DNA from: Flavobacterium aerium
GTDB taxonomy: Bacteria > Bacteroidota > Bacteroidia > Flavobacteriales > Flavobacteriaceae
DNA length: 64,000 nt
Reading direction: 5' to 3'
Assembly (NCBI RefSeq): GCF_030766725.1
Contig: NZ_JARQWR010000013.1
Span: forward strand, 1 to 64,000
Part shown: positions 37,880 to 58,817 of the stretch, one piece after another
Numbering within the stretch: position 1 is the stretch's first letter
Layout of the letters: each line of letters opens with the position of its first letter
Notes under the pieces: generated by a model
What the model was told of the DNA's origin: nothing
The model's database searches: none
What the model saw: the letters and a program-made list of their open reading frames with translations, nothing else
Position numbers and translations under genes: made by a program

Positions 37880-38836
37880 TTAAAATATCTGGCTTGCAAT
37901 CGATTTAATGTTATCTGATTTACCCATTGAGTAATAATGCAATACAGGAATTCCTGCCTTGATAAGATCTTTACTTTGCGCAATACACCATTCAATTCCT
38001 ATTTGTCGTACTGCATCATTGTCTTTTGCATTTACAACGGCCATAATTAAATCATCTGGCAAATCTACTTTGAATCGGTGTGGGATTAAATTGAGTTGTT
38101 TTTTTGTTGAAATGGGTTTTAATCCTGGAATAATGGGTACTGTTATTCCTTCTTTTCTGCATTTGGCTACAAAATCGAAGAACTTTTTATTATCATAAAA
38201 CATTTGTGTGATAATATAATCGGCTCCATTTTTTATTTTTTGTTTTAAAAAATGGATGTCACTGTCCAAACTTGGCGCTTCCATGTGTTTTTCTGGATAG
38301 CCCGCTACACCAATGCAGAAGCTTGTCGCTGTTGAATTTTGCAAATCATCATCCAGATACACTCCTTTGTTCAGGTTAGATATTTGAGAAACTAATTCAC
38401 TTGCAAATTGATTTCCTTCTCGTTCTGGTTTAAAATAGATTTCGCTTTTCACCGCATCTCCTCGTAAGGCTACAACATTCTGAATGCCTAAAAAATCTAA
38501 ATCAATCAGAAAATTTTCAGTGTCTTCTTTACTGAATCCTCCACACAAAATATGTGGAATCGCATCGACTTCGTATTTATTTTGAATTGCCGAACATATC
38601 CCAACTGTTCCTGGGCGTTTCTTGACAATTTTCTTTTCTAACAGTCCACTTGGAAGTTCTTTATATTCATATTCTTCTCTATGGTAAGTAACATTAATAA
38701 AGGGCGGATTAAAATCCATTAAGGGATCAATACTATCAAAAATTGATTGAATGTTTTGTCCTTTTAAAGGGGGTAATATCTCGAAAGAAAACAGCGGTTT
38801 TCCTGCTGCTTTTTCTATATGTTGTGTAACTTTCAT
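37880..38836 (-). CDS. metF: Methylenetetrahydrofolate reductase
   Basis: The 318-residue FAD enzyme makes 5-methyl-tetrahydrofolate, the methyl donor for MetH. FSFEILPPLKG (16-26) holds the catalytic Glu, INVTYHREEY and VALRGDA are substrate- and FAD-site blocks, and IITQMFYDNKKFFDFVAKC lies in the C-terminal half. It lies 35 bp after the large MetH polypeptide and belongs to the SAM-I riboswitch-controlled unit metH1-metH2-metF. Confidence 0.93.
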   Translation of the reverse strand: MKVTQHIEKAAGKPLFSFEILPPLKGQNIQSIFDSIDPLMDFNPPFINVTYHREEYEYKELPSGLLEKKIVKKRPGTVGICSAIQNKYEVDAIPHILCGGFSKEDTENFLIDLDFLGIQNVVALRGDAVKSEIYFKPEREGNQFASELVSQISNLNKGVYLDDDLQNSTATSFCIGVAGYPEKHMEAPSLDSDIHFLKQKIKNGADYIITQMFYDNKKFFDFVAKCRKEGITVPIIPGLKPISTKKQLNLIPHRFKVDLPDDLIMAVVNAKDNDAVRQIGIEWCIAQSKDLIKAGIPVLHYYSMGKSDNIKSIASQIF

Positions 38837-38871
38837 TTGCTTGTTTGTTGTCTTTGATATTCGTTTGTATT

Positions 38872-41553
38872 CTAATCGGCAATATTAGGATTCAACCATT
38901 TTTCGGCTACTTCAAAGGGTATATTTCTTCTTTTCGCATAATCGATCACCTGATCTTCTTTAATTTTCCCTAAACCGAAATATTTACTTTCTGGATTGGC
39001 AAAATAATAACCTGATACAGAGGAAGCTGGCCACATTGCTAAGCTTTCGGTTAGTGTTACTCCAATAGCTTTGTCTACCTGTAATAGTTTCCAAATGGTA
39101 TTTTTCTCCAAATGGTCTGGACAGGCTGGATAACCGGGTGCAGGACGAATTCCTTTGTAGCTTTCGGCAATTAAAGCTTCATTGTTCAATGTCTCTTCGG
39201 ATGCATATCCCCAGATTTCTTTTCTTACTTTTTTATGTAAATATTCCGCAAATGCTTCGGCAAATCGATCTCCTAACGCTTTAATCATAATCGAATTATA
39301 ATCATCGTGATTGGCTTCAAATTCGGCTGCTTTTTGATCTACTCCAAAGCCTGTGGTCACACAAAAGGCTCCCATATAATCTACTTTTCCTGAATCTTTT
39401 GGTGCAATGAAATCGGATAAAGCAATATTTGGTGCTCCTTTCGTTTTTTGGGATTGTTGTCTTAACGTTAGAAATGTCTGCAAATGATTCCCTTCTTCAT
39501 CGGAGATTGCAATATCATCATCATTGATTTGATTGGCTGGAAAAATCCCATAAATTCCTTTGGCTTCTAACCAATTTTCGGCGAGTAATGAGGATAACAT
39601 TTTCTGAGCATCTTTAAATAATAAAACTGCTTGTTCTCCAACTACTTCATCGGTTAGAATAGCAGGATATTTCCCGTGTAAATCCCATGTTCTGAAAAAA
39701 GGAGTCCAGTCAATAAAATCAACCAATTTTTCCAATCCCACAGTAATTGTTTTTACTCCAACGAAATTTGGTTTCACAGGCGTAAACTCATTCCAATTTA
39801 ATTGTAATTTATTTTTTCTAGCTTCTTCAATATTCAAGAAGTTTTTATCGCGAGAGCGATTCAAATAGCCTTCTCGTAGTTCATTGTATTCAGAACGTAG
39901 ATTTTTAAAGTATTCTTGGTTTGTATTTGTATTAATCAAGTTACCTACTACTGTTACTGCTCTGGAAGCATCGTTTACATGTACAACTGTTTCTCTATAT
40001 TCTGGTGCAATTTTCACCGCAGTATGTGCACGTGATGTCGTTGCTCCACCAATCATTATTGGAATTTTAATATTCAGCTTATCCATTTGTTTTACCAGAT
40101 AGACCATTTCATCTAGTGATGGTGTAATTAAACCACTTAATCCAATAATGTCGACTTTTTCTTTGATAGCAGTTTCAATAATTTTTTCTGGAGGAACCAT
40201 TACACCCATATCCACAATTTCATAATTATTACACCCTAATACGACTGCAACAATATTTTTCCCAATATCGTGCACATCTCCTTTTACGGTTGCCATCAAT
40301 ACTTTACCTGCCGATTGTGCTCCTCCTCCTTTTTGTGCTTCTATAAAAGGAAGTAGATAGGCTACAGCTTTTTTCATTACTCGGGCCGATTTTACTACTT
40401 GTGGTAAAAACATTTTTCCGCTTCCAAACAAATCTCCTACGACATTCATTCCGCTCATCAAATCAATTTCGATTACTTCAATCGGGTTTTCAACTTGTAA
40501 ACGGGCTTCTTCTACATCAATTTCAATAAACTCATCGAGTCCTTTCACTAAGGAATGCACTAATCGTTCTTGTACGGGTAGGGATCGCCATTCTTGGGCT
40601 TGTTTTTCAGTGATTTTACTTTCTCCTTTAAAGCTTTCAGCAAAATCTAATAATCGTTCTGTTGCATCATCGCGTCTGTCTAACAAGACATCCTCAACGT
40701 GTTCTAATAGGTCTTTGGGTATTTGATCGTATATTTCCAGCATTTCTGGATTTACGATTCCCATGGTCATCCCGTTTTGTACGGCATAATATAGAAACAC
40801 AGAATGCATCGCTTCCCGTACTTTATCGTTGCCACGAAATGAAAATGAAACATTGCTCACACCTCCACTTACACTGGCATAGGGAAGGTTTTCTTTGATC
40901 CATTTTGTTGCTCTGAAAAAATCAATTGCATTCTGACGGTGTTCTTCCATCCCAGTTGCAACTGGAAAGATATTAGGATCAAAAATGATATCTTCTGCTG
41001 GGTATCCTACAGTATCGACCAAGATGTCATAGGATCTCTTACAGATTTCAATACGACGTTCATAATTATCGGCTTGTCCTACCTCATCAAAAGCCATTAC
41101 AATAACGGCTGCTCCGTAGCGTTTGATTAATTTTGCCTGACGGATAAAATTCTCTTCTCCTTCTTTTAAACTAATTGAGTTAACAATACTTTTTCCTTGT
41201 GCTACTTTTAATCCTGCCTCAATGATTTCCCATTTAGAACTATCAATCATGATGGGTACGCGGGAAATATCGGGTTCGGAGGCAATTAAATTCAAAAAGG
41301 TCGTCATAGCATGAACGCCATCTAGCATTCCCTCATCCATATTAATATCGATGATTTGTGCTCCTCCTTCTACTTGATCTCTGGCGACTGCCAGCGCTTC
41401 GGAATATTTTTCTTCTTTTATTAAACGCAGGAATTTTCGTGAACCTGTTACATTAGTACGCTCTCCTACATTGACAAAAATGCTTTCTGGCGTAATAATC
41501 AAGGGTTCTAATCCTGATAATTTCAAATATTTATTACAGTCAATCTCTGCCAT
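38872..41553 (-). CDS. metH: Methionine synthase, folate/cobalamin/activation polypeptide
   Basis: This is the C-terminal three-quarters of cobalamin-dependent methionine synthase (893 residues from this start). Domains in order: pterin-binding (INVDMDEG-type motifs, [17 protein letters not shown] near 24-40); cobalamin cap and cobalamin-binding (DVHDIG with the axial His, then [13 protein letters not shown]); and the SAM-dependent reactivation domain ([12 protein letters not shown]). The homocysteine-binding domain is a separate gene just upstream. I set the start at MAEIDCNKY: it overlaps the upstream stop as TAATG, whereas the longer frame to 41640 would overlap that gene by 88 bp and adds unrelated residues. 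Confidence 0.92.
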
Positions 41554-42554
41554 TATATCGTTTGTTCTATTTTTCTCGGTTGGTATTCTTTTGCTACTTC
41601 TGCAATTAATCGAATATGCTCCGGATTCGTTCCACAGCATCCTCCAATAATATTGATTAGATCGTCTTCTAAATATTCTCGGATTAAGGCTTGCATTTCT
41701 TCTGGTGTTTGATCGTATTGACCAAAGGCATTGGGTAATCCTGCATTAGGATGTGCCGAAACATTGAAAGAAGTATTGTGTGATAATCGTTGTAAATAAG
41801 GTTTCAACTGATCAGCACCTAGGGCACAATTGAATCCTATACTCAACAACGGAATATGAGAAATTGAGATTAGAAATGCTTCTACAGTTTGTCCCGACAA
41901 GGTTCTCCCTGAAGCATCGGTTATAGTACCACTCACCATGATAGGAATATCCAGATTTCGTTCATCTTTCACTTCTTCTATTGCGAATAGGACGGCTTTC
42001 GCATTTAATGTATCAAAAATGGTTTCTACCAAAAGAATATCGGCTCCTCCATCAATCAGCGCTTCTACTTGTTCTTTATAGGCAATACGTAAGTCATCGA
42101 ATGTTACGGCACGGTATCCCGGATCATTTACATCGGGAGACATACTAGCTGTTCTATTTGTTGGTCCTATTGAACCTGCAACAAAACGGGGTTTATCTGG
42201 ATTTTGAGCAGTGTATTCGTCGGCTACTTCACGAGCTATTCTAGCAGATTCATAGTTTAGTTCATAGACTAAATCTTCTAAGTGGTAATCGGCCATACCA
42301 ATGGTTGTTCCCGAAAAAGTATTGGTTTCAACAATATCAGCTCCAGCAGCAAAATACTGACTGTGTACATCGCGAATGGCTTGTGGTTGTGTTAGACTCA
42401 ATAGGTCATTGTTTCCCTTCAATGAATGTGGGAAATCTTTAAAGCGTTCTCCTCGGAAATCTTCTTCGGAAAAATTATAGCGTTGCAACATGGTCCCCAT
42501 CGCTCCGTCGAGTATGAGAATTCTATCTTGTATTGCTTGGTGTATTTTAGACAT
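41553..42554 (-). CDS. metH: Methionine synthase, homocysteine S-methyltransferase polypeptide
   Basis: The 333-residue protein is the N-terminal, homocysteine-binding barrel of MetH encoded as its own gene. [11 protein letters not shown] (13-23) opens the barrel. The zinc ligands are the Cys in [12 protein letters not shown] and the CC pair in [15 protein letters not shown] (about 300-314). It must assemble with the next gene's product to make a working synthase; the TAATG junction would help equal synthesis. A SAM-I riboswitch precedes it by about 75 bp. Confidence 0.92.
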
Positions 42555-42603
42555 AAAACGATAAACTTTAGTTTATATCGATATGTCATCAGGAAAGGAA
42601 AGG

Positions 42604-42624
42604 GAATACTAAAAAAAAGTATTC
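42604..42624 (-). repeat. Hairpin between SAM-I aptamer and metH start
   Basis: The minus strand pairs GAATACT with AGTATTC around a loop of seven Ts, directly after the aptamer. With no T-tract behind the stem it is not a standard terminator. It could be part of the riboswitch expression platform. Confidence 0.45.
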
Positions 42625-42628
42625 GTGT

Positions 42629-42730
42629 GTTATCTATCCAAAAAATTTGGTAGAATGTAGCACCTTCTTTAATAAATTAAAGGGTTGCTAAGGCTTCATT
42701 GGGTCTAATCCCTCTGCCTTTCGTGATAAC
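42629..42730 (-). ncRNA. SAM-I (S-box) riboswitch upstream of metH
   Basis: The minus strand carries the S-box core: GTTATC (P1 5' strand), AGAGGGATTAGACCC, AATGAAGCC, AGCAACC, AAGGTGCTAC, and the closing GATAAC (42634-42629) that pairs with the opening GTTATC. P3 forms from CTTTAATTTATTAAAG and P4 from CTACCAAA with TTTGGATAG. It binds S-adenosylmethionine and should repress metH1-metH2-metF when SAM is plentiful. The expression platform is not obvious because no T-tract terminator follows. Confidence 0.92.
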
Positions 42731-42753
42731 GATCAATATGTGAATGAACATTG

Positions 42754-42761
42754 CAAAGCTA
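42754..42761 (-). promoter_or_regulatory. Promoter of the metH-metF unit
   Basis: The minus strand reads TAGCTTTG with TTTG 21 bases upstream (42783-42786). Transcription would start near 42747, just ahead of the riboswitch. The -33 box lies inside the 3' end of the homoserine dehydrogenase gene. Confidence 0.65.
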
Positions 42762-42769
42762 CTACAATT

Positions 42770-43873
42770 TTAGGATATTAAACAAATTTCTTTTGTCTTT
42801 ATTATTTCTGCTACTTTCAGTATATCAGTCAGTACGCCTCTAGCAGTTACTTCTTTTCCTGCACCAGCACCTTGAATTACTATTGGATTATCACCATAAG
42901 AATCTGTGAAAATTGCAATTAATGAATCGGCTCCTTTGAGTTGTCCCAAGGGTGAGCCAAGTGGTTCTGAAACTAATTTTACTTCTAGTTTTTGCTTCTC
43001 CACATCGAGTTCTCCAATATAGCGTAACACATGATCTGGTAGCTGGGTAATTTTTGCAGTATGAAAGGGTTCGTCTAATTGGGTTATATTTCGTTTATAT
43101 TCCGATCGGGTTACGTTTTCCTCCAAAGAAGGGAGTAATAATGAGGTTACTTTTACATCTGAAAACTCAAAGGATTGTTCTATTTCTCGGGCTAAAATCA
43201 GTAGTTTTCGGGCTACATCATTTCCTGAAAGGTCTTCTCTGGAATCGGGTTCTGTATATCCTAATTTTTCTGCACGTTGTACAATTGTTGAAAAAGGTAC
43301 TTCTTCTTTGGCAAAGGCATTAAAGATATAGCTTAATGATCCTGAAAAAACGCCTTGTATTTTAGTAATTCTTTCTCCAGAATAATGTAAATCTCTAATG
43401 GTTTGTACTACTGGTAATCCAGCTCCTACGTTGGTTTCATATAAAAAGGTTTTGTCAAATTTCTGAAGGTTCTCACGAATTTCATCATATAAGCTCAAGG
43501 GTAATGTATTGGCTATTTTATTGGCTGCTACAATATGAAATCCATTTTGGATTAACTTCAAATAGTCTTTTACCAACTCTCCACTGGCTGTAGCATCTAC
43601 CGCAACAAGGTTTTCCAATTGGTTTATTTTGACATATTCTATGATATCTTCTATTCTGAATGGAATAGCCGATTGGGCAAAATTCGCTTCCCACGAGTTT
43701 CTAATTCCTTCTTTTTCAAAAAAAGCTAAGGTAGAATTGGTAATAATCGGGAATCTTAGTTCTATATTTTTCTTTTCTAAAAAGAAGTCCTGACTTTCAA
43801 TCACTTGATTGATTAGTGTACTTCCTACATTTCCTATTCCGAATAGGATGATATTTACTTTATGCGTTGACAT
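42770..43873 (-). CDS. Homoserine dehydrogenase
   Basis: The protein (367 residues from this start) reduces aspartate semialdehyde to homoserine. The nucleotide-binding motif is ILFGIGNVGSTLINQV (7-22), and the catalytic region is EKLGYTEPDSREDLSGNDVARK-like, containing the conserved Lys and acidic residues. It is monofunctional: no aspartate kinase domain is fused, unlike ThrA. I chose MSTHKVN at 43873, overlapping metX by 14 bp; the frame extends to 43930, but that adds a Lys/Gln-rich piece unlike the family start. It is the last gene of the leader-peptide-controlled operon. Confidence 0.9.
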   Translation of the reverse strand: MSTHKVNIILFGIGNVGSTLINQVIESQDFFLEKKNIELRFPIITNSTLAFFEKEGIRNSWEANFAQSAIPFRIEDIIEYVKINQLENLVAVDATASGELVKDYLKLIQNGFHIVAANKIANTLPLSLYDEIRENLQKFDKTFLYETNVGAGLPVVQTIRDLHYSGERITKIQGVFSGSLSYIFNAFAKEEVPFSTIVQRAEKLGYTEPDSREDLSGNDVARKLLILAREIEQSFEFSDVKVTSLLLPSLEENVTRSEYKRNITQLDEPFHTAKITQLPDHVLRYIGELDVEKQKLEVKLVSEPLGSPLGQLKGADSLIAIFTDSYGDNPIVIQGAGAGKEVTARGVLTDILKVAEIIKTKEICLIS

Positions 43874-44861
43874 AGCTTGTTTGTTTTTGTTTGTTAAAGA
43901 TTGATTGAATTCCTTTTGACAATTGTTCATATTCGATCAGAAAGGCATCGTGTCCATGAATGGAATCTATTTCATGGTAGTACACATTCATTTTATTGGC
44001 TTTTAAGGCTTGATAGGTTTCTCGATTTTCATCGGGTGTAAAAAATCCATCGGTGGCAATCCCGATAATATGGATGTTTGATTTTATTTCTTTGGTTACA
44101 TCAAAAAAACTTCCTCTTCCTCTTGTTATATCAATGGTTTTCAAGAGGTGATTCATTAATTTATAAGAGGATAATTGAAACCGGTTTTTTAATTTTTCTC
44201 CATGATGGTGTAACCATGATTCTACTTCGAATTGTTTTGTTTCTATATTAATCTCTCGTTTAAACTTCAATCGAAAGGATTGTGGTGTACGGTATAAAAG
44301 CATTGCATGTAATCGGGCATCGTGAATGGGATTTTCCGAATTGTTCAAAATTTGATCTTGAACTAGCACATTGGAAATAATCCAATCTGATGCTTTCCAA
44401 TCGGTCGCGATCACAATTAAATTTTCTATATAATTGGGTTCTAAAGCGGCCATTTCCCATGCAATTCCTCCTCCTAAACTTCCTCCTATTACTGTAAATA
44501 GCTTCTCTATTTTTAATTGTCTTGTTCCTTCCAAAAAAATTTGAGCGATGTCTCTTGCTGTAAAATCTTTATAGTTTTCAATTAAATTTTCTGGATTTCC
44601 ATCGTATCCATTTCCGGGTACATTAAAGGCTATTACCGTAAATTCGTTTGTATCAATTGTTTTATTGGTTCCTATCAATTCATTCCACCATCCTTTTTCT
44701 CCTATTACTTGCGAATTTCCTGTTAGGGCGTGATTGACGACGACTACTGGAGCGCTTCCCAATATTTTTCCAAAGGATTGATAGTGTAATACTATTTCTG
44801 CATAGTTTTTACCCTGCTCTGTACAGAAATTCTGAATTGCTATTTTGTGTATTTTTCCCAT
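43860..44861 (-). CDS. metX: MetX-like homoserine O-acyltransferase
   Basis: The 333-residue alpha/beta-hydrolase activates homoserine by acylation (probably acetylation) for direct sulfhydrylation by MetY. VVVNHALTGNSQV (about 38-50) is the MetX-type HALTG block, the nucleophile elbow is GGSLGGG with the catalytic Ser, and DGFFTPDENRE and IDSIHGHDAFLIE carry the Asp and His. It diverges from classic MetX in reading FNVPGNGYDGNP where CN.LGG.GSTGP is usual, so it is a distinct subgroup. It overlaps the next gene by 14 bp. Confidence 0.85.
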   Translation of the reverse strand: MGKIHKIAIQNFCTEQGKNYAEIVLHYQSFGKILGSAPVVVVNHALTGNSQVIGEKGWWNELIGTNKTIDTNEFTVIAFNVPGNGYDGNPENLIENYKDFTARDIAQIFLEGTRQLKIEKLFTVIGGSLGGGIAWEMAALEPNYIENLIVIATDWKASDWIISNVLVQDQILNNSENPIHDARLHAMLLYRTPQSFRLKFKREINIETKQFEVESWLHHHGEKLKNRFQLSSYKLMNHLLKTIDITRGRGSFFDVTKEIKSNIHIIGIATDGFFTPDENRETYQALKANKMNVYYHEIDSIHGHDAFLIEYEQLSKGIQSIFNKQKQTSYVNA

Positions 44862-44875
44862 TTTGATTTTAAATT

Positions 44876-44938
44876 AGACTGTCTTTAGTCGAAGTTCCAA
44901 AGACAGTCTTTAGTACAATAATCTAAACAAATTGTACT
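44876..44938. repeat. Two hairpins in the osmC-metX gap
   Basis: AGACTGTCTTT (44876-44886) pairs with 44899-44909, and AGTACAAT (44912-44919) pairs with ATTGTACT (44931-44938). No leader frame and no T-tract accompanies them, so they are better read as processing or stability elements than as an attenuator. Confidence 0.45.
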
Positions 44939-44958
44939 GTTCTTTTATCGTATTTCCA

Positions 44959-45426
44959 TTAGGCAACTTCATCTAATATTTCTTTCGGAAACTCTTTTAC
45001 TAAAGTGAGTTCGATGGGTGTACTATTGACCAGATTGTCTTGAATGGGGCATCGTTCTTCCACGAGTGCTAACCATTTTTGCAACAATTCAAACGAAACA
45101 TCTGTTGTTGGTTTTACTACAACTTCTATCTTTTTAAATCCTGCTCTTTCATTAGTTTCTTTTCCATAATATTTTGAAGTATCTAATTCACCTGAGATTT
45201 CTACTTGTAATGATTTTAAAGGGATGGCTAGTTCTTTTGCTACTAATTGTCCTACTGCGTTAATGCATCCTGCAAAACCGGATAATAGATATTCTATTGG
45301 GCTTGGTCCTTCTAATTCTGGTGCTTTAGCGTTTTTACTTATTCTAACACTAAAGTTTTGTGTCTTGACAACGAATTGTTCATTGCCTTCTACATATCCT
45401 AATACGTTTACTGTTTTTGTGCTCAT
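44959..45426 (-). CDS. OsmC-family protein
   Basis: The 155-residue protein has the OsmC/Ohr fold: APELEGPSPIEYLLSGFAGCINAVGQ (about 33-58) carries one redox Cys (Cys53 region) and ERCPIQDNLVNSTPIE near 130 the second. OsmC proteins reduce organic or fatty-acid hydroperoxides through these cysteines. It starts 5 bp after metY and is in the methionine operon, so it may handle sulfur-containing or persulfide intermediates; that is inference from position only. Confidence 0.88.
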   Translation of the reverse strand: MSTKTVNVLGYVEGNEQFVVKTQNFSVRISKNAKAPELEGPSPIEYLLSGFAGCINAVGQLVAKELAIPLKSLQVEISGELDTSKYYGKETNERAGFKKIEVVVKPTTDVSFELLQKWLALVEERCPIQDNLVNSTPIELTLVKEFPKEILDEVA

Positions 45427-45431
45427 CTTTT

Positions 45432-46724
45432 TTATACTAAGTGGGTTGTTTTTATTATTTCAAATACGGCTTTTAGATCTGCTTTTAAATCTTCAATGTC
45501 TTCTAGTCCTACTGAAAGTCGAATCAAATCTTTTGTAACTCCTGTTGCAAGTTGTTGTTCCTCTTTTAATTGTTGATGGGTTGTGCTTGCTGGATGAATA
45601 ATTAGTGATTTTGTATCTCCAATATTGGCTAGTAAGGAGAATAATTTCGTTTCATCGGCTATTTTCTTCGCTTGTTCATATCCGCCTTTTACTCCAAATG
45701 TTACAATTCCACTGCTTCCTTTTGGCAAATAAGCTTGTGCTAATGCGTAATATTTATTGCTTTCTAGTCCTGGATAATTTACCCATTGTACTTCTTCTTG
45801 ATCTTCTAGCCATTTTGCTAGGGCTAGTGCATTTTCACTATGTTTCTTTACTCGAATATCTAGGGTTTCTAATCCTTGGATAATTTGGAAAGCGTTGAAT
45901 GGGCTTAAGGCCGCTCCATGATCGCGTAATCCTTCAATGCGAACTTTTGCAATAAAAGCAACATTTCCTAGGGCTTCGTGATATACTAATCCGTGGTATC
46001 CTTCTGATGGCTCTGTAAACTCAGGAAATTTCCCATTACTCCAATCAAAGTTTCCACCGTCAATGATTACTCCTCCTAGTGAGGTTCCATTACCACCAAT
46101 ATATTTTGTCAAGGAGTGAATGACAATATTAGCTCCGTGTTCAATAGGGTTGAGTAAATAGGGTGTTGCTACAGTATTGTCCACAATAAACGGGACTTTG
46201 AATGCTTGTGCTTCTTTTGAAATAGCTCTTAAATCGAGTACATCTAATTTTGGATTCCCAAGTGATTCTACAAAAAAGGCTCTCGTATTTTCTTTAGCTG
46301 CTTTTGTGAAATTTGTTGGATCAGATGGATCAACAAAAGTGGTTGTTATCCCTAATCGAGGTAGTGTAACATTTAATAAATTGTAGGTTCCTCCGTATAA
46401 ACTATTGGAGGCAACAATATGATCTCCCGATTTTAGTAATACTAATAGGGCTGTTGATATGGCAGCGGTTCCCGAAGCAGTAACTACTGCGCCAACGCCT
46501 CCTTCTAGTGTGGCTAATCGCTGTTCTAGAATATCATTTGTTGGGTTATTTAATCGGGTATAAATATAACCTGGTTCTGCTAATGCAAATAAATTTGCTG
46601 CATGTTCTGCATTGTTAAACACATAGGATGTTGTTTGGTAAATTGGTACTGCTCGGGTTCCACCATTTTTAGTAACATCATGTCCTGCGTGCAATGCGTT
46701 TGTTGAGAATTTTTGTGTGCTCAT
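45432..46724 (-). CDS. metY: O-acetylhomoserine sulfhydrylase
   Basis: The 430-residue PLP enzyme makes homocysteine from O-acetylhomoserine and sulfide. TNALHAGHDVTKNGG near the start, YTRLNNPTND (about 54-63), GGTYNLLNVTLP, the PLP lysine in HSLTKYIGGNGTSLGG, and the late HPASTTHQQL are family hallmarks. Its length of about 430 residues and the GHDVTK start favour MetY over cystathionine gamma-synthase. It is the first structural gene after two tandem Met-rich leader attenuators. Confidence 0.92.
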   Translation of the reverse strand: MSTQKFSTNALHAGHDVTKNGGTRAVPIYQTTSYVFNNAEHAANLFALAEPGYIYTRLNNPTNDILEQRLATLEGGVGAVVTASGTAAISTALLVLLKSGDHIVASNSLYGGTYNLLNVTLPRLGITTTFVDPSDPTNFTKAAKENTRAFFVESLGNPKLDVLDLRAISKEAQAFKVPFIVDNTVATPYLLNPIEHGANIVIHSLTKYIGGNGTSLGGVIIDGGNFDWSNGKFPEFTEPSEGYHGLVYHEALGNVAFIAKVRIEGLRDHGAALSPFNAFQIIQGLETLDIRVKKHSENALALAKWLEDQEEVQWVNYPGLESNKYYALAQAYLPKGSSGIVTFGVKGGYEQAKKIADETKLFSLLANIGDTKSLIIHPASTTHQQLKEEQQLATGVTKDLIRLSVGLEDIEDLKADLKAVFEIIKTTHLV

Positions 46725-46770: not shown

Positions 46771-46811
46771 AAAATAAAAAAGCCCTTTTGGAACATTTAC
46801 CAAAAGGACTT
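46771..46811 (-). terminator. Attenuator terminator 2 of the methionine operon
   Basis: The minus-strand stem AAGTCCTTTTGG with CCAAAAGGGCTT (one G-U pair) is followed by TTTTTATTTT, 47 bp before the metY start. Its 5' arm can instead pair with 46847-46856 in the second leader peptide. Confidence 0.9.
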
Positions 46812-46834
46812 TACACTTGAAATATAAACTAAGA

Positions 46835-46933
46835 TTAAGTCATTCGCTTTTGGCAATAGCTGGGTTGCATGAAAATACACATACACATGTGCATCATCAT
46901 TTTATTCATCATTGTTGCTATTGTCTTATTCAT
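46835..46933 (-). CDS. Methionine leader peptide 2
   Basis: A 32-codon frame with nine Met codons between residues 1 and 22, including MMNKMMMHMCMC at 8-19, lies between terminators 1 and 2. TTGCCAAAAG (46856-46847, codons 26-29) can pair over 10 bp, with one G-U, with CTTTTGGTAA in the 5' arm of terminator 2. Stalling of ribosomes at the Met codons would leave that segment free and prevent termination; reading to the stop at 46835 would cover it. An in-frame ATG at 46972 sits in the T-tract of terminator 1 and is less likely to be used. Confidence 0.85.
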   Translation of the reverse strand: MNKTIATMMNKMMMHMCMCIFMQPSYCQKRMT

Positions 46934-46972
46934 GATTATTGATATAATTTTATAATTTTTATTGTATTGCAT

Positions 46973-47005
46973 AAAAAAAGCCCCTGCGAATGGCAGAGGC
47001 TTTTT
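46973..47005 (-). terminator. Attenuator terminator 1 of the methionine operon
   Basis: The minus strand reads AAGCCTCTGC, a short loop, GCAGGGGCTT and T7, a strong Rho-independent terminator with one G-U pair. It lies directly after methionine leader peptide 1. Its CTCTGC (46998-46993) can pair with GCAGAG (47048-47043) within that leader. Confidence 0.9.
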
Positions 47006-47027
47006 GCTTTATATTTAGAATTTAAAT

Positions 47028-47096
47028 TTAGGCAATAGTGTGCTCTGCGGAAGTTCTCCACATCATCATACACATATTGCTAATAATAAATTTCAT
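47028..47096 (-). CDS. Methionine leader peptide 1
   Basis: A 22-codon frame, MKFIISNMCMMMWRTSAEHTIA, carries MCMMMW at 8-13. It starts about 42 nt after the predicted transcription start and is followed by terminator 1. GCAGAG in codons 17-18 complements CTCTGC of the terminator 5' arm, six perfect pairs. A ribosome waiting at Met12 would end just short of that segment, and one at the stop codon would cover it. Together with leader 2 this makes two attenuators in series. Confidence 0.85.
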   Translation of the reverse strand: MKFIISNMCMMMWRTSAEHTIA

Positions 47097-47144
47097 TTTG
47101 TTTCTTTTTAACGGAACAAACCTCCGAACTCTTTTTTAATTTTC

Positions 47145-47152
47145 CAAATTTA
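47145..47152 (-). promoter_or_regulatory. Promoter of the methionine biosynthesis operon
   Basis: The minus strand reads TAAATTTG, an exact -7 match, with transcription predicted near 47138. A GGAGG lies between it and leader peptide 1. Confidence 0.55.
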
Positions 47153-47240: not shown

Positions 47241-47663
47241 CTAACTTTTAATAATTTTTTTTATCGAAGTTCCCTTTGTTGTCTCCACTCTTACAAAGTA
47301 TAATCCCATTATTAAATTTGAAATATTCACTTGGGTTTGACTTACTTGATTTGCATTGACCTTTTTAACAATTCTACCATTAATATCAATTAGTTCAATT
47401 TTATTTATAGTTGATAAAGTTGATTTTATGGTAAACACATCTCTTGTCGGATTAGGATACATCGTGAATGTATTTTTAATATCCGAAACCTCTTCTAGTT
47501 CTAAAGCGATTGCATCATCTTCTTCTGGAGCAGTTCCAGTTTCTGTTATATTTGCTTCAACATTTCCACTTGTTAATGTTTCGGAATTGTCAATTTGTAG
47601 GAATTGCGCTTTTGCGTTAGTTAAAAATAAGCAGATAATAATTGAAAGTATTTGTTTTTTCAT
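47241..47663 (-). CDS. Short T9SS sorting-domain protein, internally deleted paralogue
   Basis: The 140-residue protein has a signal peptide (cut after NAKAQ, about residue 20), a short acidic middle, and a type IX secretion C-terminal sorting domain (about 65-140: FTMYPNPTRDVFTI, IELIDINGRIV, GLYFVRVETTKGTSIKKIIKS). Both ends match the 339-residue protein at 48997-50016, including LQ.(D/E)N and GN.....IT.T after the signal, but about 200 middle residues are missing. It therefore looks like a paralogue that lost its passenger domain and exports little more than the sorting signal. Confidence 0.75.
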   Translation of the reverse strand: MKKQILSIIICLFLTNAKAQFLQIDNSETLTSGNVEANITETGTAPEEDDAIALELEEVSDIKNTFTMYPNPTRDVFTIKSTLSTINKIELIDINGRIVKKVNANQVSQTQVNISNLIMGLYFVRVETTKGTSIKKIIKS

Positions 47664-57437: not shown

Positions 57438-57448
57438 CACCATAAAAT

Positions 57449-57503
57449 CGAGAGGAAAAATTTGAACTGATTGCAACCTCATTAAAAAAATGCTAAAGCA
57501 GAA
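57449..57503 (+). ncRNA. SAM-II-type riboswitch upstream of metK
   Basis: The layout matches the SAM-II (metA-type) pseudoknot. GAGG (57452-57455) pairs with CCTC (57477-57480) as P1, and the loop contains AUUUG and the conserved AUUGCAA. The downstream AAAAAAAUGCUAAAGCAG can re-enter the loop: AUUU (57460-57463) with AAAU (57488-57491), and CUG with CAG. It compares block for block with the metX SAM-II RNA of marine origin (AUUU, AUUGCAA, P1, GCUAAA). A SAM-sensing role before SAM synthetase fits. The class assignment is by eye. Confidence 0.78.
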
Positions 57504-57540
57504 ACACTCCTTTAGCTTCTTGCAATCCTATTTTTTCCTC
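57452..57540 (+). other. Nested alternative hairpin spanning the metK riboswitch
   Basis: Three nested helices can form instead of the aptamer: GAGGAAAAA (57452-57460) with TTTTTCCTC (57532-57540), GATTGCAA (57469-57476) with TTGCAATC (57520-57527), and GCTAAAG (57492-57498) with CTTTAGC (57510-57516). Each uses bases needed by the SAM-II fold, so the two states are mutually exclusive. This is probably the expression platform. Confidence 0.6.
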
Positions 57541-57566: not shown

Positions 57567-58817
57567 ATGGCATATTTATTTACGTCAGAATCGGTGAGCG
57601 AAGGACATCCAGACAAAATTGCCGATCAAATATCGGACGCATTAATTGATAACTTTTTAGCTTTTGACCCTGAGTCGAAAGTAGCTTGTGAAACTTTAGT
57701 TACTACAGGTCAGGTTATTTTAGCAGGTGAAGTAAAATCCAAAATATATCTTGACGTACAGAACATTGCGCGTGAAGTTATTAAGAAGATTGGTTATACG
57801 AAAAGCGAATACATGTTTGAAGCAAATTCTTGCGGTGTATTATCAGCTATTCATGAGCAATCACAAGATATTAATCAAGGTGTAGATCGTACGAGTAAAG
57901 AAGAACAAGGAGCTGGTGACCAAGGAATGATGTTTGGTTACGCTACAAATGAAACGGAAGATTACATGCCATTGGCATTGAATTTATCTCATAAATTATT
58001 GCAGGAACTTGCTGTATTACGTCGTGAAAATAGTGAAATCACTTATTTACGTCCTGATGCAAAATCACAAGTTACATTAGAATATGACGATCATAACAAA
58101 CCTGTTCGTATTGATGCTATTGTAATTTCTACACAGCATGATGATTTCGCTGAAGAATCGGTTATGTTAGCTAAAATCAAAAAGGATATTGTAGAAATTT
58201 TAATTCCTAGAATTATCGCTAACAATCCTCAGTATGCTCATTTATTTAATGACACAATCCAATATCATATTAATCCTACTGGAAAATTTGTAATTGGTGG
58301 GCCTCACGGTGATACTGGATTAACAGGAAGAAAAATCATTGTAGATACTTACGGTGGTAAAGGTGCTCACGGTGGTGGTGCATTCTCTGGAAAAGATCCT
58401 AGTAAAGTAGACCGTAGTGCTGCTTATGCAACGCGTCACATTGCTAAAAATTTAGTTGCTGCTGGTGTAGCTGACGAAATTTTAGTTCAGGTGAGTTATG
58501 CTATTGGTGTAGCAAAACCAATGGGAATTTACATCAATACTTATGGTACTAGTAAAGTAAACTTAAAGGATGGTGAGATTGCTAAAATCGTTGAAGGCCT
58601 ATTTGATATGCGTCCATACTTTATTGAGCAACGTTTGAAATTAAGAAACCCTATTTATAGCGAAACTGCTGCTTACGGGCACATGGGACGTAAGTCTGAA
58701 GTTGTGACTAAAACGTTTACAGCACCAGGAGGAAAAGAAAAAACAGTTACTGTTGAACTATTCACTTGGGAGAAATTAGACCACGTAGATGTCGTTAAAA
58801 AAGCATTTGGATTATAA
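57567..58817 (+). CDS. metK: S-adenosylmethionine synthetase
   Basis: The 416-residue enzyme forms SAM from methionine and [24 protein letters not shown]-type opening (ATP and Mg site), [12 protein letters not shown] (about 115-126), the P-loop-like [20 protein letters not shown] (about 248-267) and the [19 protein letters not shown] signature are all intact. It is 20-30 residues longer than the E. coli enzyme, as usual in Bacteroidota. The gene is monocistronic, behind a SAM-II-type riboswitch and ahead of a strong terminator. Confidence 0.95.

What the first reader, a model, noticed from the sequence alone, without database searches (positions are those of the whole stretch)
46771..47152. 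Two Met-rich leader-peptide attenuators in series before the methionine operon
Between one promoter and metY the minus strand holds leader 1 (MCMMMW at residues 8-13), terminator 1, leader 2 (MMNKMMMHMCMC at 8-19) and terminator 2. In each unit a segment inside the leader, downstream of the main Met run, complements the 5' arm of the following terminator: GCAGAG with CTCTGC, and TTGCCAAAAG with CTTTTGGTAA. Their positions fit ribosome stalling at the Met codons (segment free) against reading to the stop (segment covered). Two units in tandem would give multiplicative, steeper control by charged Met-tRNA. Leader-peptide attenuation is established for other amino acids; a tandem methionine pair is unusual to me.
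Basis: partly seen in the sequence, partly recalled or inferred. Interest (0 to 1): 0.92.

Follow-up and report, generated by a model that had tools for sequence, protein, structure and literature searches.

The report
Two serial methionine/cysteine leader-peptide switches
In Flavobacterium and relatives the methionine genes are often preceded by two short peptide-coding switches in a row, rich in methionine and cysteine codons, that most likely let RNA polymerase through only when ribosomes stall for lack of these amino acids, where most related genera have a SAM riboswitch instead.

Summary
On the minus strand, after one predicted promoter, lie leader 1 (47096-47028), terminator 1, leader 2 (46933-46835) and terminator 2, then metY. 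Chance is unlikely: 0 of 2000 shuffles gave two such units. Both units recur upstream of metY in relatives: all 20 congeneric genomes with a close metY (of 37 searched) have at least one, and 10 have the adjacent pair. A segment of each leader pairs with the 5' arm of its own terminator, and both sides change together across species. A ribosome stalled in the Met/Cys run leaves this segment free; near the stop it covers it. In related genera, 65 of 74 scanned leaderless loci carry a SAM-I riboswitch before metY; 0 of 12 leader loci do. Best reading: serial ribosome-mediated transcription attenuators sensing charged Met- and Cys-tRNA. Such attenuation is known and was suspected in flavobacteria; I found no report of a same-signal tandem before a biosynthetic operon. 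All evidence is comparative; nothing was measured.

The parts
47145..47152 (-). promoter-like element TAAATTTG (TAnnTTTG, the -7 motif of Bacteroidetes promoters, recalled)
   Evidence: 56 nt upstream of leader 1 ATG; motif within 160 nt upstream of U1 in 16 of 31 tandem pairs, and in 0 of 31 spacers between the units
47028..47096 (-). leader 1 ORF MKFIISNMCMMMWRTSAEHTIA*, regulatory Met/Cys codons 8-12
   Evidence: conserved as U1 in relatives
47075..47083 (-). segment 1 of leader 1 (TTAGCAATA), can pair with TATTGCCTAA 47037-47028; part of the helix that closes segment 2 when leader 1 is untranslated
   Evidence: sequence; P of 2:3 is 0.01 without ribosome; segment 2 paired upstream with mean probability 0.62 over 43 U1 units
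47043..47048 (-). segment 2 of unit 1 (GCAGAG), antiterminator 5' half
46975..47005 (-). terminator 1; its 5' arm holds segment 3 (CTCTGC 46998-46993)
   Evidence: 3:4 energy -18.5 kcal/mol
46835..46933 (-). leader 2 ORF MNKTIATMMNKMMMHMCMCIFMQPSYCQKRMT*, regulatory Met/Cys codons 8-22
   Evidence: conserved as U2 in relatives
46847..46856 (-). segment 2 of unit 2 (TTGCCAAAAG)
46779..46812 (-). terminator 2; its 5' arm holds segment 3 (CTTTTGGTAA 46806-46797)
   Evidence: 3:4 energy -17.0 kcal/mol
45432..46724 (-). metY, O-acetylhomoserine aminocarboxypropyltransferase/cysteine synthase, first regulated gene
   Evidence: TIGR01326 648 bits, above cut-off 495
37880..45426 (-). rest of the gene cluster on the same strand: OsmC-like, metX-like, hom, metH (two ORFs), metF
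   Evidence: the metX, hom and first metH matches are below the NCBIfam cut-offs
42627..42732 (-). SAM-I riboswitch inside the gene cluster, between hom and the first metH ORF
   Evidence: Rfam RF00162, 80.4 bits

Best explanation
Two ribosome-mediated transcription attenuators in series control the metY-osmC-metX-hom-metH-metF cluster. Each unit is a short ORF rich in Met and Cys codons followed by an intrinsic terminator. When charged Met-tRNA (or Cys-tRNA) is scarce the ribosome stalls in the codon run. Segment 2 just downstream is then free and pairs with segment 3, the 5' arm of the terminator, so RNA polymerase reads on. When charged tRNA is plentiful the ribosome runs to the stop codon, covers segment 2, and the terminator forms. 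In leader 1, if translation does not start, a 1:2 helix sequesters segment 2 and termination is again favoured. The polymerase must pass both units, so read-through should be the product of two probabilities. The units belong to a wider sulfur-amino-acid leader family in Flavobacteriaceae that also stands before sulfate-assimilation genes, and at metY it takes the place of the SAM-I riboswitch found in most related genera. Shown by sequence: ORFs, codons, terminators, alternative pairings, geometry, conservation, SAM-I in place of leaders elsewhere. Inferred: one transcript, translation of the leaders, tRNA sensing, transcription-translation coupling, multiplicative output.
For: Own segment 2:segment 3 duplex -12.48 (43 U1) and -12.84 (36 U2) kcal/mol against -9.38 and -10.16 with partners swapped between loci (Wilcoxon 5e-10, 6e-7) and -8.02 and -8.65 shuffled. 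Matched changes on both sides: GCAGAG:CTCTGC, GCAGCG:CGCTGC, GCAGGG:CCCTGC, TGTGGG:CCCACA; TTGCCAAAAG:CTTTTGGTAA, ATGGCCAAAA:TTTTGGCCAT, TTACCAAA:TTTGGTAA. ATG is 355 of 1928 codons in frame, but 11 and 14 of 1849 in the other frames (ORFs were chosen partly for Met/Cys content). 472 of 570 Met/Cys codons lie where a stall leaves segment 2 free; 78 of 79 units have two or more such codons. In the window, P(2:3) in leader 1 is 0.93-0.97 with the A site at M8-M12 and 0.01 with no ribosome; in leader 2 it is 0.95 or more through M22. 20 of 20 congeneric genomes with close metY hold one or more units. SAM-I before metY in 65 of 74 scanned leaderless loci and in 0 of 12 leader loci. A second tandem before cysH and a single Met/Cys leader before a sulfite-reductase-family gene in G159.
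Against: No expression data. RNAalifold found no consensus pair in the unit 1 alignment, so the covariation rests on my own duplex test, which does not remove shared ancestry; taken one by one only 22 of 43 U1 and 19 of 36 U2 units rank within the best 2 of 50 against shuffled leaders. Six of 43 and six of 36 do not beat their swapped mean. Leader 2 is predicted open (0.77) even with no ribosome, so unit 2 alone would be leaky. The zeros of P(2:3) for ribosomes near the stop are set by rule once segment 2 is covered. Only 10 of 20 congeneric genomes have the adjacent pair: 6 have U1 alone; 4 have U2 next to metY, and in the 3 of these that I read U1 lies about 3 kb upstream with a TonB-receptor gene between. 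Some copies are decaying (G159 unit 2; five of 84 parsed copies had fewer than three Met/Cys codons and were dropped). Leaders are a minority in the family: 12 of 87 metY loci.
Confidence: 0.85

Rival explanations
1. Only one of the two units matters in a given species; the other is a redundant or decaying copy of an ancestral duplication.
For: 10 of 20 congeneric genomes lack the adjacent pair, unit 2 is decayed in G159, and second pairs inside clusters are often degenerate.
Against: In the window both units keep codons, pairing and terminator. 31 adjacent pairs were found in the loci examined (several are decayed second pairs), across genera, and a second intact pair stands before cysH in this genome.
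Confidence: 0.1
2. Nascent-peptide arrest: the peptide itself binds a ligand such as SAM or methionine in the exit tunnel, rather than codons sensing tRNA.
For: C-terminal residues of leader 1 look conserved in many copies (SAExxIA).
Against: The conserved stretch behaves as RNA, not peptide: segment 2 is read as SA[EAGR] in 19 of 43 U1 units and in another frame as PQ[RSG] in 9. Order and length of the Met/Cys run vary while content stays high.
Confidence: 0.04
3. The signal is Met-tRNA only; Cys codons are a by-product of ATG-TGT sequence.
For: G018 and G020 leaders are almost pure Met; Cys codons are also frequent in the +1 frame (186 of 1849).
Against: Runs such as MMMCCMM and CCC do not follow from ATG overlap. 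The Cys share is higher where cysH is present (mean 0.48 in 12 genomes against 0.24 in 6, p 0.007, not corrected for phylogeny), and the metY family's name includes cysteine synthase.
Confidence: 0.15
4. The hairpins are ordinary terminators of upstream transcripts and the ORFs are chance.
For: A gene ends upstream on the same strand at 47241.
Against: Shuffle and background tests, matched pairing, recurrence of both units in relatives.
Confidence: 0.01

Closest known systems
Classical amino-acid leader-peptide attenuators (trp, his type)
   Same: Short ORF with codons of the product amino acid, alternative 2:3 and 3:4 pairings, intrinsic terminator. This genome has an ordinary single His leader (MFSIQLHHHHFHICSQAKC) before hisG.
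   Different: Two units in series before one operon, with Met and Cys codons mixed; the classical form as recalled has one unit.
Salmonella mgtCBR tandem attenuators mgtM/mgtP (PMC3641672; abstract and one section read)
   Same: Two short ORFs in one leader, each part of an attenuator.
   Different: There the two sense different signals (ATP, proline), effects are additive, the stem-loops do not resemble intrinsic terminators, and the operon is for Mg2+ transport and virulence. Here both units carry the same kinds of codon and intrinsic terminators, and precede the cognate biosynthesis.
Candidate metL of Streptomyces lividans before metNIQ (PMC8079986; passages)
   Same: Leader peptide with Met and Cys codons (CMCRRMC) before a methionine-related operon.
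   Different: Single, transport genes, no typical Rho-independent terminator according to that paper.
Leader-peptide attenuation clues in F. psychrophilum (PMC9723704; passages and one section read)
   Same: A Flavobacterium; leader attenuation suspected upstream of amino-acid biosynthesis operons; conserved 5' elements before hisG and pheA among others.
   Different: The section read names no methionine or tandem case, and the word methionine does not occur in its main text; its supplement was not available to me.
SAM-I riboswitch (RF00162)
   Same: Stands before metY in most related genera sampled, and lies inside this gene cluster.
   Different: Senses SAM directly, no leader ORF; no Rfam match in 46.7-47.2 kb.

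Membership tests
Ribosome-mediated transcription attenuator (leader-peptide type) | short ORF with a run of codons for the pathway's amino acid | tested here: met
Ribosome-mediated transcription attenuator (leader-peptide type) | intrinsic terminator between leader ORF and first gene | tested here: met
   terminator 2; both; by sequence only
Ribosome-mediated transcription attenuator (leader-peptide type) | mutually exclusive antiterminator pairing, conserved by matched changes | tested here: met
   but RNAalifold gave no consensus pair for unit 1
Ribosome-mediated transcription attenuator (leader-peptide type) | geometry: stall at regulatory codons frees segment 2, ribosome at the stop covers it | tested here: met
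   (model with a fixed ribosome edge)
Ribosome-mediated transcription attenuator (leader-peptide type) | leader translated; read-through depends on charged tRNA | not testable with these tools
   needs expression data; in-frame ATG excess supports translation only indirectly
Tandem attenuators of the mgtCBR kind | two leader ORFs in one transcript, each with its own alternative structures | tested here: inconclusive
   two ORFs with own structures: met; one transcript is inferred from the lack of a promoter-like motif in the spacers (0 of 31 pairs)
Tandem attenuators of the mgtCBR kind | the two units sense different signals | tested here: not met
   codon content of both units is Met/Cys; the sensed signals themselves were not measured
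SAM riboswitch (SAM-I/SAM-II) | aptamer match in the metY leader | tested here: not met
   matches in the window only at 42627-42732 and 57446-57506
T-box | Rfam T-box match | tested here: not met
   no match in the window at gathering threshold

The most novel reading that the evidence does not exclude
A regulon-wide design in which two leader-peptide attenuators that read the same pair of codons (Met and Cys) are placed in series before sulfur-amino-acid operons, giving a product of two tRNA-charging readings. The tandem is kept as an element, swaps repeatedly with SAM-I riboswitches at the same gene, and its Met:Cys codon ratio tracks whether the genome can make its own cysteine from sulfate.
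Probability: 0.55. Interest if true: 0.82.

Novelty: new variant of a known kind. Interest (0 to 1): 0.72.

Why it matters
The RNA-level methionine control best known in bacteria uses SAM riboswitches or T-boxes (recalled). Here a phylum whose transcription-translation coupling is little studied (recalled) appears to use peptide attenuators for sulfur amino acids, doubled in series. It makes three questions testable in culturable Flavobacterium: whether Bacteroidota couple translation to transcription closely enough for attenuation, what a second gate of the same kind adds (steepness, lower leak), and why a lineage trades a metabolite sensor (SAM) for a tRNA-charging sensor at the same gene, at least ten times by parsimony on a weakly supported metY tree.

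Tried and rejected
RNAalifold consensus on the unit 1 alignment gave no pairs; model R1 is therefore sequence only. The tally (176 of 299 family genomes at E 0.01 with R2) is not a count of leaders: hits as good as about 1e-7 are plain gene-end terminators without a leader (L128 and G170:C8; also C52:70367 in G000), so I count only loci read one by one upstream of metY, cysH or sulfite reductase. I considered chance ORFs, riboswitch or T-box, nascent-peptide arrest and one-relic models (see rivals). The metY tree by FastTree has 44 of 104 inner branches open; I use it only for 'many switches'. For the pairing test I took 88 model hits (cross-hits of one model on the other unit, antisense hits and duplicate loci left out). 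Four could not be parsed into an ATG ORF plus terminator: G019 unit 1, whose frame starts with GTG, L180 unit 2, L261 unit 2 and the G159 sulfite-reductase leader. Five parsed units with fewer than three Met/Cys codons were dropped. R1 and R2 were built from units of loci L001-L100, so most genus matches are by construction; of the family loci only L179 repeats a training stretch (L043). L257 has a weak candidate leader (MITAISKHNHCMRMSFLLGTI plus hairpin) and was counted as leaderless; L189 (G066), also in the leaderless set, has only 383 nt upstream and its leaders are on another contig.

Absence of prior reports rests on the held open-access library only: searches.

Full report
Observation. 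On the minus strand of the window the stretch 47152-46771 reads: promoter-like TAAATTTG (47152-47145), leader 1 (47096-47028), terminator 1 (47005-46975), leader 2 (46933-46835), terminator 2 (46812-46779), then metY from 46724. The scanner listed only terminator 2. Chance is unlikely: 0 of 2000 dinucleotide shuffles gave two Met/Cys-rich ORF-plus-terminator units and 2 of 2000 gave one or more. In 254,566 background bases (both strands counted), 2 of 100 ORF-plus-terminator pairs had five or more Met/Cys codons.

Setting. The genes downstream on the same strand are metY, an OsmC-like gene, metX-like, hom, metH in two ORFs and metF. MetY passes the curated cut-off of the family 'O-acetylhomoserine aminocarboxypropyltransferase/cysteine synthase'. 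A SAM-I riboswitch lies inside the cluster at 42732-42627, and a SAM-II element precedes metK, which starts at 57567 (metK named by eye). The genome (G000, 4.0 Mb) is unnamed. Five named Flavobacterium records give 83-87% metY identity.

Conservation of the tandem. Upstream of metY I find the same two units, in the same order, in Flavobacterium, Christiangramia, other Flavobacteriaceae and, more diverged, a MAG labelled Saprospiraceae (L031). Of 60 genomes searched, 37 are of the genus (own included) and 20 of these hold a metY at E 1e-200 or better. All 20 have one unit or more by covariance models, most of them by construction since the models were built from these loci: 10 an adjacent pair (in G019 the first leader starts with GTG), 6 unit 1 only, 4 unit 2 only. 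In the three of these four that I read (G004, G006, G015) unit 1 is still present about 3 kb upstream, with a TonB-dependent-receptor gene between the units (Pfam on two of the three). Unit 1 is found in 91 of 120 congeneric genomes at E 1e-6. In the family sample 88 of 129 genomes have metY at E 1e-200. Of the 87 other than the window's own, 12 show leader units: 7 pairs, one with a decayed second unit, and 5 single. One more (G066) has the pair on a contig where a transposase-like ORF follows, while its metY lies near the end of another contig.

Replacement of a riboswitch. Of the 75 leaderless loci, 74 have upstream sequence and were scanned with Rfam. 65 carry SAM-I on the coding strand with its near end within about 300 nt of metY, and one (L224) carries SAM-II there. 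None of the 12 leader loci carries SAM-I in the stretch held (2.5 kb upstream and metY). On a FastTree of 107 metY proteins the two states change at least 10 times (many weak branches). Several leader-bearing genomes, including the window's, have SAM-I further downstream in the cluster.

Pairing. From 88 chosen model hits I parsed 84 units and kept 79 with three or more Met/Cys codons (43 of type 1, 36 of type 2). The best duplex between the leader's 3' part and the terminator's 5' half is stronger with its own partner (-12.48 and -12.84 kcal/mol) than with partners from other loci (-9.38 and -10.16) or with shuffled leaders (-8.02 and -8.65). 37 of 43 and 30 of 36 beat their swapped mean; 22 of 43 and 19 of 36 rank within the best 2 of 50 against shuffles. 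Segment 2 lies at a near-constant distance before the stop in unit 1 (median -22 to -12) and more variably in unit 2. Matched changes include GCAGAG:CTCTGC, GCAGCG:CGCTGC, GCAGGG:CCCTGC, TGTGGG:CCCACA and, in unit 2, TTGCCAAAAG:CTTTTGGTAA, ATGGCCAAAA:TTTTGGCCAT, TTACCAAA:TTTGGTAA, GCCAGAGG:CCTTTGGC. Shared ancestry is not removed by the swap test, and RNAalifold found no consensus pair for unit 1.

Codons. ATG makes up 355 of 1928 in-frame leader codons but 11 and 14 of 1849 in the other frames. The ORFs were chosen partly for Met/Cys content, so this is not a fully independent test. Cys codons are frequent (mean 1.9 and 3.7 per unit). Segment 2 of unit 1 is read in two different frames (SA[EAGR] in 19 of 43 units, PQ[RSG] in 9), so RNA, not peptide, appears to be kept there. 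This speaks against nascent-peptide arrest.

Geometry. Counting a downstream ribosome edge 12 nt from the A-site codon, 472 of 570 Met/Cys codons lie where a stall leaves segment 2 free. In the window, the probability that 2:3 has formed when segment 3 emerges is 0.93-0.97 for an A site at M8-M12 of leader 1 (0.83-0.93 already at I5-N7), 0.79 at W13, and 0.01 without ribosome. For leader 2 it is 0.95 or more up to M22, 0.79 at Q23, 0.01 at P24, but 0.77 without ribosome. Values of 0 closer to the stop are set by rule because the ribosome covers segment 2. So leader 1 looks like a full three-state attenuator and leader 2 a leakier one.

A sulfur-amino-acid leader family. The same genome has a second tandem pair before cysH-cysD-cysN and a PALP-family gene that looks like cysK: MTNQVLCMTMCMCFSENEEVSAMV and a second leader with MMMCCMC, each with its terminator and pairing. 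Of 30 cysH loci examined in the genus (of 41 matches), 4 have such a pair and 1 a single unit; in 25 none was recognised within 900 nt. In G030, whose cluster I read, cysH lies on the same strand of a met-cys cluster that carries two tandem pairs. G159 has a single Met/Cys leader before a sulfite/nitrite-reductase-family gene with a 10-bp CACTTAAAAG:CTTTTAAGTG alternative (read by eye). The Cys share of regulatory codons is higher in 12 genomes with cysH (0.48) than in 6 without (0.24; p 0.007, not corrected for phylogeny; two of the 20 genomes not scored for cysH). By contrast the His leader before hisG in this genome is single.

One transcript. Between terminator 1 and leader 2 the spacer has a median of 39 nt (19-203) and holds the TAnnTTTG motif in 0 of 31 pairs; within 160 nt upstream of unit 1 it is present in 16 of 31. 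That both units lie on one RNA is therefore inferred, not shown.

Known systems. Leader-peptide attenuation is classical. In the passages read, Naville and Gautheret 2010 (PMC2965389) know it only in Proteobacteria and Actinobacteria and add Firmicutes. A 2021 F. psychrophilum study (PMC9723704, passages and one section read) reports 'strong clues' for it in flavobacteria without naming methionine. A candidate single Met/Cys leader is listed in S. lividans (PMC8079986, passages). Cys leaders without obvious terminators are listed in Actinobacteria (PMC1262725, passages). A B. thetaiotaomicron map mentions sORFs reminiscent of leader peptides (PMC7366714, passages). [quoted passage not shown] I found no report of two same-signal leader attenuators in series (searches; open-access library only). 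Hence 'new variant of a known kind'.

Noticed in passing
L302, L303, L304 (G006, G004, G015): A TonB-dependent-receptor gene (about 948 aa) sits between unit 1 and unit 2, as if the tandem had been split and unit 1 now controls an uptake gene; a possible sulfur-compound transporter.
   Followed up: partly
L270 (G030:C8), also L093, L097, L098: A second tandem pair of related units lies downstream of metY, before a second metY in G030; in L093, L097 and L098 these copies have few Met/Cys codons left.
   Followed up: partly
window 38872-42554: metH is split into two ORFs (homocysteine S-methyltransferase part and the rest), while G020 has a single 1243-aa ORF (L271).
   Followed up: no
window 57446-57506: SAM-II riboswitch before metK, so SAM-I, SAM-II and leader attenuators all lie in one methionine network.
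   Followed up: partly
L302:4478-4654 and equivalents in L303, L304 (coding-strand coordinates): A small ORF of 58-62 aa lies between unit 2 and metY in some Flavobacterium; the one tested (L304) has no Pfam match.
   Followed up: no
L272 (G000:C22), 163 nt upstream of hisG: Ordinary single histidine leader peptide MFSIQLHHHHFHICSQAKC with terminator.
   Followed up: yes
L125 and L189 (G066): A transposase-like ORF follows the intact tandem leaders; metY lies on another contig behind an integrase-like remnant.
   Followed up: no
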